Shown: positions 16,529 through 19,341 of the stretch, piece after piece | Position numbering within the stretch: the first letter of the stretch is position 1 | How the letters are laid out: each line of letters starts with the position of its first letter | Virus record (IMG/VR): IMGVR_UViG_3300044994_000543 | Location: 1-25,753 of that record | Length of the DNA stretch: 25,753 nucleotides | DNA from: a virus | Strand: one strand, 5' to 3' | Made by a program: the position numbers and the translations under genes | The notes under the pieces: generated by a model | Told to the model about the DNA's origin: nothing | Database searches by the model: none | Seen by the model: only the letters and a program-made list of their open reading frames with translations

Positions 16529-17680
16529 ATGAATTTTTTACAAAAAATACAGCGAGCTTTCTCGCAAGGCAAAGACGAAAAACTGCTTAATGAAATAAAA
16601 AAACTTACAGCACAAAAAGCAATCGCAAAGAAAGATTCTTTTTACAAAACACGTGTTTTTTATGCAGAAAAACACATAAAAGACTGGAAAGACGCAATAA
16701 ACGAAGCAACGTCTTATCCTTACTACAGAAAAACAAACCTCTACGAGCTAATAGAGCAGATTCGCTACGATGGGCAAATAAAAGCACAGGTGCGTACAAG
16801 AAAAAACGGCACACTTGCAGAACCTTTCTTGATAGACGCAGACAACGAAACAAAGAAAATTATCAAGAAAATAATAGATGTAATTCTTGATAGCTTGCTG
16901 TTTTGGGCATCTGCATGCGAAGTAAACCAAGAGGGTGTATTTGTAGTAAAGCCAGAATACTTGTGTATTGAGAAAAACGAGCTTGTGATTGGCTATGAAC
17001 AAGGCGTTCCGTTCTCTTGTTTTGAAGATTTACTTGTTTTCAAAAACCCTTTCGACGACTTAGGGGAGCTAACTTTTGCTGCACAGTACGCAATCTATAA
17101 AAGATTCTCGCTTACGGATTGGAGCAGGCATTCAGAGTTATTTGGTATGCCCTTTTTGAGTCTTCGCACGCCCACTACAGACCCCGTAGAACTAAAAAAG
17201 AAACACAATGCTCTTAGCAATTTTGGCTCTGCTGCATACGTGATATTAGATACCGACGAAGAACTTTCTGCAATCGACACAAAAAATACAACAAGCCCTC
17301 ACGAGATCTACTTAGAAATGATAAAGTTTTGTGACGAGCAAATCAGTAAGATTATTGCTGGTCAGACAGGCACAGCAGACACAAAAGCTTTTGTGGGTTC
17401 AGCCGAGGTGCATGAGAGGATTTTGGATTGGTACGTAGAGTTTGATATGCGACACGTGCAAGAAACAATAAACCATCAAGTATTGCCTTTACTTGAAAGA
17501 AAAGGGCTTGTGAAAAAAGGAGCGATTTTTGAGTTTTCGTATTTTAAAGAAAAAAGAGAGGCTTCTGCAAAAAAAATAATAAGCAAACAAGAAGGGGAAA
17601 CTTCTGCACAGCAACACTCACACAATCATATCGAAAGCGACTACGAAAGCTACCTGCTCTCGTTAAAAAAAAAATGCTAA
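16529..17680 (+). CDS. Portal protein (DUF935, Mu gp29 type)
   Basis: A 383-residue protein with the signatures of the DUF935 portal family: RKTNLYELIEQIRYDGQIKA (residues about 71-90), the aromatic FSLTDWSRHSELFGMPFLSL segment (about 192-211) and CDEQISKIIAGQTGTAD (about 272-288) with GSAEVHERILDW. It forms the dodecameric DNA channel at the head vertex. It is shorter than Mu gp29, mainly because the stretch before residue 120 is reduced, as in other Bacteroidota versions. The end lies in a 10-A run (17665-17674), and the stop TAA overlaps the gpF start in ATGCTAA. Confidence 0.9.
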   Translation: MNFLQKIQRAFSQGKDEKLLNEIKKLTAQKAIAKKDSFYKTRVFYAEKHIKDWKDAINEATSYPYYRKTNLYELIEQIRYDGQIKAQVRTRKNGTLAEPFLIDADNETKKIIKKIIDVILDSLLFWASACEVNQEGVFVVKPEYLCIEKNELVIGYEQGVPFSCFEDLLVFKNPFDDLGELTFAAQYAIYKRFSLTDWSRHSELFGMPFLSLRTPTTDPVELKKKHNALSNFGSAAYVILDTDEELSAIDTKNTTSPHEIYLEMIKFCDEQISKIIAGQTGTADTKAFVGSAEVHERILDWYVEFDMRHVQETINHQVLPLLERKGLVKKGAIFEFSYFKEKREASAKKIISKQEGETSAQQHSHNHIESDYESYLLSLKKKC

Positions 17681-18792
17681 ACTATCTCGTTTTTGATTTT
17701 GATTTCGGGACATTTTGGGAAAACCAAGATGATAGCCTTTTTAATTACTATTTAAACCAGTTTCAAACGCCTATTGAAGACCTTTTAAACAAAGAGGAAT
17801 ACCCTGAGCTTTTTGCAAAATTCAAGCAAAATGCTTACGAATTTGCTCTTGCGAAAGCGAGCACTTTTATAGAAAAAAGCAAAGGAATGAGCAGAGCTGA
17901 AGCAAAAACACTTTTAGAAAAAATGAATAGGCACAACGAAACAGAGAAAATTCAATTTGCTCTTGCCGTGCAGGCAGCACAGGAATGGCAAGAAATACTA
18001 AAAGATGCTGAAACAACACCAAACTTAGAGTACAGGGCAGTATTGGACGAAAACACAAGGGAAAGCCACGCAAGTCTAAACGGTATTATAAAGCCTATAA
18101 AAGACGAGTTTTGGAATAGCTATTTCCCGCCCATCGATTACCGCTGCAGATGCTCGGTTAGGCAGCTAAACAGCAAAGCAAAGATTACACAAACGCTTCC
18201 AGAAAACCTCCCCGCAATCCCGAAAGGACTTGGGCACAACCCGGGTGAAAGCGGACAGGCGTTCAATTTTGCACACACTTATTTTGACAACACTAACGAT
18301 ACAGCTCTCAAAAACGTGCAAAAATATGCGGCATACAGCGAGCAATACAAAAAAGAATACTTCGATATAAAAACTGGCGGATACCTCGTAGTAAACAAAA
18401 AAGCGAACACAAAAACTCTTGAAGCAAATCTTTTAGCAGGGAAAGTACTTGCTAAAAATTGCTACACGGTGGAAGTGAACAAAGAGGAGCTTGCAGGCTA
18501 TACAATAAACGGAAGCCTATCAGAACTAAAAACACCGACCACAAAAAACGCAGAAAAAATAATTTACAATAGCATCAAGAAGGCAAAAGAGCGGAGCGGG
18601 TTAAACGAATGTGTAGTTTTTCTTTCAGCCAAAAAATACAATATCGAAAAACTGCTCTTTGGCTTAGAAAAAGCATTTGAAAGCAAAAAAAGCTTTCAGA
18701 AAATAATTATAATAAGAGGCGAAAAAACCGCAGAGATTACACGGAAAGACTTAGGAAAAGCGAAAAGCAGGCTGCAAGAAGTCTTAAAATAA
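17674..18792 (+). CDS. gpF-like head morphogenesis protein with C-terminal CdiA-like nuclease domain
   Basis: A 372-residue two-part protein. Residues about 1-185 are a MuF / SPP1 gp7 domain (PF04233 type), with the signature YRAVLDENTRESHASLNG at 120-137 and PPIDYRCRCSVRQL at 152-165; this part joins the head and is injected or packaged. Residues about 235-372 form a domain not needed for head building that resembles the tRNA-nuclease-like CdiA C-terminal domain: GYTINGSLSELKTPTTKNA at 275-293 (E284-x-K286), helix IKKAKERSGL, strand ECVVFLSA, and final helix/strand pair. The usual Asp before the NG motif is missing (GYTING). MuF proteins with toxin ends are known. No immunity gene follows. 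Confidence 0.82.
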   Translation: MLNYLVFDFDFGTFWENQDDSLFNYYLNQFQTPIEDLLNKEEYPELFAKFKQNAYEFALAKASTFIEKSKGMSRAEAKTLLEKMNRHNETEKIQFALAVQAAQEWQEILKDAETTPNLEYRAVLDENTRESHASLNGIIKPIKDEFWNSYFPPIDYRCRCSVRQLNSKAKITQTLPENLPAIPKGLGHNPGESGQAFNFAHTYFDNTNDTALKNVQKYAAYSEQYKKEYFDIKTGGYLVVNKKANTKTLEANLLAGKVLAKNCYTVEVNKEELAGYTINGSLSELKTPTTKNAEKIIYNSIKKAKERSGLNECVVFLSAKKYNIEKLLFGLEKAFESKKSFQKIIIIRGEKTAEITRKDLGKAKSRLQEVLK

Positions 18793-18794
18793 AA

Positions 18795-18820
18795 CTGCCC
18801 TGCCGTCTTAGACAGGGCAG
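18795..18820 (-). terminator. Intrinsic terminator at the end of the early/middle operon
   Basis: Arms CTGCCCTG and CAGGGCAG with a 10-base loop form a perfect 8-bp stem. Read on the minus strand the stem is followed by TTTTATTTT, so it terminates the leftward operon after the gpG-like gene. Read on the plus strand it is followed by CCCC, so it should not end the rightward operon. A further CAGGGCA at 18828-18834 can pair with the same left arm, giving an alternative stem. Confidence 0.75.
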
Positions 18821-18879
18821 CCCCTTGCAGGGCATTACAAATATACAGCAATGCTTTGTAAATACAAAATATTGGCAAG

Positions 18880-19341
18880 TTACAATTTATCTAAATTATC
18901 TTTTATTACTTTTACTATTTTCACCCTTAAGGATTTCTCCATTCCTAAGAATTGGCGTTTTGGCATCTTTTCGCCATTATTATGTCGCTTTGCATACGGC
19001 ACATTGCTATAAAAAACTATCTTTGCTTCCTCTATTCTGTATTTCAAACTGCGAGAAAGAACTCCTTTACCTACTAGCGTAGCTCTTGTAGCATCACGGG
19101 GTGTAAAGCCCTTTAGGTAGCCACTTCTTTTTTTAAGAGCTTTCCCGTTTTTATCTACAACCTTGTATTTTTTCGGTCCTTCGGTTTTACGCTTTGGCTC
19201 TACCCATTTTTGCGACTCCCAGTTGTCGCCACCTGCTACAAATTTGTCTTTGTAGTGATTCAAAGCCTCTATCGCCACCTCTTTTTTAATAGAAGTAGCA
19301 ATATTTTTGAATTTTTGCGAAAGTTCAAGTATTTTTCTCAT
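18880..19341 (-). CDS. Virion morphogenesis protein (Mu gpG / phage_tail_S type)
   Basis: A 153-residue protein of the family of Mu gpG and P2 gpS (tail completion). Supporting segments: GGDNWESQKW (the family's W-x-x-L-like motif after the N-terminal helix), LVGKGVLSRSLKYRIEEAKI with G-x-L-x-x-S, VPYAKRHNNGEKMPKRQFLG (the conserved YA-x-x-H-x-x-G then P-x-R-x-F-x-G pattern). These are the defining motifs. In Mu gene G follows F on the same strand. Here G is the last gene of the leftward operon and faces gpF, the two genes ending 87 bases apart. It overlaps the HTH gene before it by 17 bases. Confidence 0.82.
   Translation of the reverse strand: MRKILELSQKFKNIATSIKKEVAIEALNHYKDKFVAGGDNWESQKWVEPKRKTEGPKKYKVVDKNGKALKKRSGYLKGFTPRDATRATLVGKGVLSRSLKYRIEEAKIVFYSNVPYAKRHNNGEKMPKRQFLGMEKSLRVKIVKVIKDNLDKL

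What the first reader, a model, noticed from the sequence alone, without database searches (positions are those of the whole stretch)
18376..18792. gpF carries a CdiA-like nuclease C-terminus with no evident immunity gene
After the MuF signature the protein continues with about 140 residues containing NGSLSELKTP (E284-x-K286) and a helix with KKAKER, as in tRNA-nuclease-type CdiA toxin ends. A toxin on a protein carried in the virion could act on the new host or on competing phages. The gene ends 87 bases before a convergent operon, and no small gene follows it on the same strand. The usual Asp before the NG motif is absent, so the domain might be altered, inactive, or harmless to its own host.
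Basis: partly seen in the sequence, partly recalled or inferred. Interest (0 to 1): 0.7.

Follow-up and report, generated by a model that had tools for sequence, protein, structure and literature searches.

The report
Phage head protein with crippled nuclease
A Mu-like bacterial virus carries, on the end of one of its head proteins, a domain with the fold of a known bacterial tRNA-cutting toxin; in this virus a key cutting residue is gone and neither it nor its relatives keep the usual antidote gene beside it, so it is probably a retired or repurposed weapon rather than a working toxin-antidote pair.

Summary
Residues 276-349 of the 372-aa gpF (17674-18792, +) match Pfam CdiA_C (PF18451) above its cut-off. 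An AlphaFold2 model (pLDDT 92.6) matches only one solved structure at E<0.001: 4G6V, the PD-(D/E)XK tRNase CdiA-CT of Burkholderia pseudomallei 1026b. MuF proteins with this toxin type are already known (Jamet 2017, cd13442). Less expected: (1) I found 24 MuF proteins with this domain, mostly from Mu-like phages and prophages of Bacteroidota. Only 1 of 24 is followed by a small same-strand ORF, against 19 of 32 related MuFs with other C-terminal extensions, so the missing antidote gene is a family trait. (2) The window copy lacks the catalytic Asp (D214 of 4G6V is G275 here) and the near-invariant helix Gln, but keeps E284-x-K286. Active-site losses occurred at least five times independently. 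In one dead pair (Peternella / W. psychrotolerans) the domain is under strong purifying selection (dN/dS 0.08), so it keeps a non-catalytic job. (3) Sibling L026 has the same MuF (70% identity) but an unrelated C-terminus followed by a small ORF. Verdict: a real toxin-derived domain, probably catalytically dead in this phage, acting as a virion pseudo-nuclease. Activity was not tested.

The parts
17674..18792 (+). gpF-like MuF minor head protein (372 aa) with C-terminal CdiA_C-type domain
   Evidence: Phage_Mu_F PF04233 residues 90-162; TIGR01641; CdiA_C PF18451 residues 276-349
17941..18159 (+). MuF domain (residues 90-162)
   Evidence: E 2e-13
18334..18789 (+). C-terminal PD-(D/E)XK-fold domain as modelled (residues 221-372)
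   Evidence: AF2 pLDDT 92.6; Foldseek 4g6v_A E 6.3e-5, prob 1.00
18496..18498 (+). codon of G275, at the position of catalytic D214 of CdiA-CT Bp1026b (P-[D/E] in 21 of 24 family members)
18523..18531 (+). codons of E284-L-K286, retained [D/E]-x-K motif
18795..18834 (.). G+C-rich hairpins in the 87-base gap between the convergent genes; possible terminator, no immunity ORF in the gap
   Evidence: z -2.5
16529..17680 (+). Mu-type portal protein, directly upstream; fused to the MuF protein in L004 and other relatives
18880..19341 (-). gpG-like neck / tail completion gene, convergent to gpF; same position but opposite strand in sibling L026
   Evidence: phrog_26

Best explanation
The C-terminus of gpF is a CdiA_C (Bp1026b-type, PD-(D/E)XK) tRNase-fold domain appended to a virion MuF protein of a Mu-like Bacteroidota phage. 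It goes into the capsid on gpF and, by analogy with other MuF effectors, may enter the next host with the DNA (inferred). In this clade it is not built as a toxin-immunity pair. In this phage it has probably lost metal-dependent cleavage (G275 in place of the motif I Asp, helix Gln lost, E-x-K left). It most likely survives as a pseudo-nuclease: a domain that binds nucleic acid or a protein in the head or in the newly infected cell, comparable to the inactive RNase-fold end of Mu's own gpF. Shown: fold, family membership by profile, loss of the conserved Asp and Gln, absence of an immunity ORF next to the gene in 23 of 24 family members. Inferred: packaging, ejection, loss of activity, binding role, and the host phylum of the window phage (from its relatives).
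For: Pfam CdiA_C over cut-off. The family profile hits 4G6V at E 4.9e-5. The AF2 model matches only 4G6V at E<1e-3 in the PDB and MuF / CdiA_C proteins of other phages in BFVD. The motif I acid is present in 21 of 24 relatives but is Gly here; the helix Gln is missing only here. Active-site lesions arose independently at least five times, each beside an intact sister. In the dead pair L003/L005 the domain has dN/dS 0.083 against 0.150 for the rest of the protein: maintained without catalysis. A small same-strand ORF follows 1 of 24 CdiA_C-type genes against 19 of 32 other extended MuFs, Fisher P 1.3e-5, and against 89.4% of MuF toxins in Jamet 2017 (PMC5576092). No Imm family among the window ORFs scanned.
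Against: E284 and K286 are kept, and nearby acids (E271, E272, just before motif I) could in principle supply the missing metal ligand; I had no model coordinates to measure this. The dN/dS test is on another dead pair, not on the window copy, which has no close enough relative. The domain evolves fast (28% identity to L004 against 72% for the rest of gpF), as expected of an active weapon as much as of a decaying one. The sibling L026 has a different C-terminus in place of this one, as a live polymorphic toxin system would.
Confidence: 0.65

Rival explanations
1. A working nuclease effector carried in the virion. It is made only late in lytic growth, when the cell is doomed, so no immunity gene is needed, and after ejection it cuts tRNA or foreign nucleic acid in the new cell. 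The lost Asp is replaced by another acid.
For: 18 of 24 relatives keep both motifs and yet have no adjacent immunity ORF; E284-x-K286 is kept here; the C-terminus evolves fast and differs between siblings.
Against: D214 -> G275 and loss of the near-invariant Gln. Late production of an active tRNase would also hurt the phage's own translation.
Confidence: 0.17
2. A classical MuF polymorphic toxin with its immunity gene elsewhere in the phage or lost recently.
For: MuF toxins with the Bp1026b-type domain are documented (PMC5576092); sibling L026 has another C-terminus followed by a 77-aa ORF.
Against: No adjacent small ORF in 23 of 24 family members; no Imm family in the scanned window ORFs, although unknown immunity families would be missed.
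Confidence: 0.08
3. A head-binding or decoration domain of unrelated origin that resembles CdiA_C by chance.
For: It sits on a head protein and can be absent: several related MuFs end shortly after the MuF domain.
Against: Independent profile and fold matches to the same single family and intact motifs in 18 of 24 relatives.
Confidence: 0.02
4. A decaying remnant without any function.
For: Two conserved residues lost; very fast divergence from L004.
Against: The reading frame is open over the whole domain and the model is confident; a dead relative pair is under purifying selection.
Confidence: 0.08

Closest known systems
CdiA-CT of Burkholderia pseudomallei 1026b (PDB 4G6V; Pfam CdiA_C PF18451; CDD cd13442)
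   Same: Fold, profile family, the YTING stretch and the 9-residue spacing between the two acid positions
   Different: On a phage head protein instead of CdiA; catalytic D214 replaced by Gly; K at the canonical E-x-K place instead of only the helix K242; no CdiI gene
MuF polymorphic toxins (Jamet et al. 2017, PMC5576092), including the cd13442 type
   Same: MuF N-terminus plus exchangeable C-terminal toxin-type domain in the head gene cluster of a phage with repressor and transposition genes
   Different: No small immunity ORF next to the gene; active site damaged
Bxa of Bacteroides stercoris (PMC11699363)
   Same: MuF toxin of a Bacteroidales prophage
   Different: ADP-ribosyltransferase with two immunity proteins
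Phage Mu gpF (gp30) with inactive PBECR end (PMC5512222)
   Same: MuF head protein with a catalytically dead nuclease-fold end in a Mu-like phage
   Different: BECR RNase fold instead of PD-(D/E)XK
Winogradskyella phage Peternella_1 gpF (L003)
   Same: Homologous C-terminal domain, also without motif I acid
   Different: Also lost the Lys of E-x-K; two tiny ORFs follow the gene

Membership tests
CdiA_C (PF18451), PD-(D/E)XK tRNase type | Profile match above the curated cut-off | tested here: met
   31.9 bits against 26.6
CdiA_C (PF18451), PD-(D/E)XK tRNase type | Fold of 4G6V | tested here: met
   pLDDT 92.6, Foldseek E 6.3e-5, prob 1.00, TM 0.57/0.65
CdiA_C (PF18451), PD-(D/E)XK tRNase type | Motif I acid (D214) | tested here: not met
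   G275
CdiA_C (PF18451), PD-(D/E)XK tRNase type | Second acid (D223) and catalytic Lys | tested here: met
   E284, K286
CdiA_C (PF18451), PD-(D/E)XK tRNase type | tRNase activity | not testable with these tools
   needs protein and assay
MuF polymorphic toxin | N-terminal MuF domain in the head gene cluster of a temperate phage | tested here: met
   MuF, Mu portal, gp36, terminase; S24-type repressor and transposition genes (temperate lifestyle inferred)
MuF polymorphic toxin | C-terminal domain exchanged between close relatives | tested here: met
   L026 70% identical over residues 2-208, then unrelated
MuF polymorphic toxin | Small immunity ORF directly downstream (89.4% of MuF toxins) | tested here: not met
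MuF polymorphic toxin | Toxicity of the C-terminal domain | not testable with these tools
   needs expression assay
PBECR / BECR RNase end of Mu gpF | BECR fold or PBECR profile | tested here: not met
   no PBECR hit, PD-(D/E)XK fold instead

The most novel reading that the evidence does not exclude
Mu-like Bacteroidota phages carry a whole clade of immunity-free CdiA_C-type MuF domains that repeatedly lose catalysis but are kept under selection, so a toxin nuclease has been domesticated as a virion component, for instance to bind tRNA or DNA at genome entry.
Probability: 0.35. Interest if true: 0.65.

Novelty: new variant of a known kind. Interest (0 to 1): 0.45.

Why it matters
It separates two ideas usually taken together for MuF proteins: a toxin-type domain and a toxin-immunity weapon. 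Here the domain is common without an antidote gene next to it and repeatedly inactivated, which makes testable the proposal that such phage nuclease-fold ends (as in Mu gpF) have a non-catalytic role in the virion or at entry.

Tried and rejected
phmmer of the single domain against the PDB gave no relevant hit; the family profile was needed. tblastn of the C-terminus alone against phages and plasmids found nothing, and viral scans with the C-terminus of the window or of L004 found nothing, so there is no close relative for dN/dS on the window copy itself. The swapped C-terminus of L026 has a H-x-H-P-x5-S-x-x-D stretch (JAB/JAMM-like, from memory), but Pfam gives nothing, its single-sequence model is poor (pLDDT 50.6) and Foldseek finds no significant match, so I do not name it; the top rows are not significant and say nothing. 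A relation to Mu's PBECR end was considered and rejected (no PBECR match, different fold). The 53-aa and 85-aa + strand ORFs behind gpF were rejected as immunity genes because they lie largely antisense to the conserved gpG gene.

Full report
Observation. The window is a 25,753-bp virus record. gpF (17674-18792, +) overlaps the portal gene by 7 nt and stops 87 bases before the convergent gene at 18880. Pfam finds Phage_Mu_F at residues 90-162 and CdiA_C (PF18451) at 276-349, both above the curated cut-offs. Around it lie a Mu-type portal, gp36, terminase, prohead protease, capsid, DUF2586 and minor tail proteins, an S24/HTH repressor, and a transposase and DNA transposition protein: a Mu-like phage with the genes of a temperate one.

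What the domain is. CdiA_C is the family of CdiA-CT of B. pseudomallei 1026b, a Mg2+-dependent PD-(D/E)XK tRNase with active residues E187, D214, D223 and K242 (PMC9990079; PMC9086364). A profile of 18 relatives matches 4G6V at E 4.9e-5. The AlphaFold2 model of residues 221-372 has pLDDT 92.6 and pTM 0.87. In the PDB, 4G6V is its only match below E 0.001 (E 6.3e-5, probability 1.00). In BFVD the best matches are MuF, minor capsid and CdiA-type proteins of other phages. Membership by profile and fold is therefore secure.

Active site. 4G6V reads NPDYTINGQVFD, the window LAGYTINGSLSE: same spacing, D214 becomes G275, D223 becomes E284, and K286 sits at the canonical E-x-K place. In 24 MuF proteins with this domain the P-[D/E] acid is kept in 21, [D/E]-x-K in 19, and both in 18. 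The window copy is the only one without the helix Gln (R307/S308; and the rows). Gln belongs to the signature of several REase-fold toxins (PMC3482391). The helix acid E187 aligns with an almost invariant Asn of the phage family, so it cannot be used as a test here. Lesions occur in the window, in L003/L005, L028, L110 and L114, each beside an intact sister in the tree: at least five independent losses.

Selection. In the dead pair L003/L005 the C-terminal domain has dN/dS 0.083 (134 codons, dS 0.45) against 0.150 in the rest of the protein: the domain is maintained without the catalytic residues. For the window copy the only close relative with the same domain (L004) is too distant: 28% identity in the domain, dS saturated.

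Immunity. With a mechanical next-ORF rule, 1 of 24 CdiA_C-type MuF genes has a small (<150 aa) same-strand ORF within 300 bases (Peternella_1, itself a dead copy), against 19 of 32 related MuFs with other extensions and 5 of 18 short MuFs (Fisher P 1.3e-5 and 0.07). The loci are related, so the P value is only a guide, and the rule picks an antisense ORF in a few loci; in most of those the next sensible gene is gpG. L113 has a 61-aa same-strand ORF 17 bases behind its gene that the rule passed over, so the count could be 2 of 24. Jamet et al. report a small ORF behind 89.4% of MuF toxin genes (PMC5576092). Pfam found no immunity family among the window ORFs scanned.

Exchange of the C-terminus. 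Window, L004 and L026 are siblings with about 64-74% DNA identity over the head genes. L004 has the portal and MuF in one protein with an intact CdiA_C-type end. L026 keeps 70% identity over gpF residues 2-208 and then has an unrelated C-terminus and an overlapping 77-aa ORF. Other relatives end in PBECR2, PBECR3, ADP-ribosyltransferase or LPD3 domains, and several have no extension at all. This is the pattern of polymorphic effector ends.

Mechanism. Shown: a toxin-family domain on a MuF head protein; damaged motif; no antidote gene beside it. Inferred from the biology of MuF proteins (PMC5576092, PMC5512222): presence in the virion and delivery with the DNA. My best reading is a pseudo-nuclease that still binds nucleic acid or a partner, as proposed for the inactive PBECR end of Mu gpF (PMC5512222). 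A working effector with a substituted ligand is the main rival.

Known or new. MuF proteins with the Bp1026b-type toxin (cd13442) are in Jamet et al. 2017, and Bacteroidales MuF toxins with immunity genes in PMC11699363. The window is thus a variant of a known kind. The immunity-free clade with repeated active-site loss and selection on a dead copy is the part I did not find described in the papers searched.

Noticed in passing
window 18880-19341; L026 5471-5935; L004 5229-5669: The gpG-like neck gene (phrog_26) is on the - strand, at the end of the run that holds the transposition genes, in the window and L004, but on the + strand directly behind gpF in the sibling L026, while the neighbouring gene keeps its orientation: a single-gene inversion between siblings.
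   Followed up: partly
L026 4634-5194 and 5175-5408: Sibling gpF with an unrelated C-terminus containing HNHP-x5-SxxD (JAB-like from memory) and an overlapping 77-aa ORF, a toxin-immunity-like layout; no family match.
   Followed up: partly
L004 2855-5152 and several other relatives: Portal and MuF are fused in one protein of 765-853 aa in several Bacteroidota Mu-like phages and prophages; in the window they are two genes overlapping by 7 nt.
   Followed up: no
L008, L082, L110: A conserved 220-232 aa gene of unknown family follows the MuF-CdiA_C gene, before the gpG-like gene.
   Followed up: no
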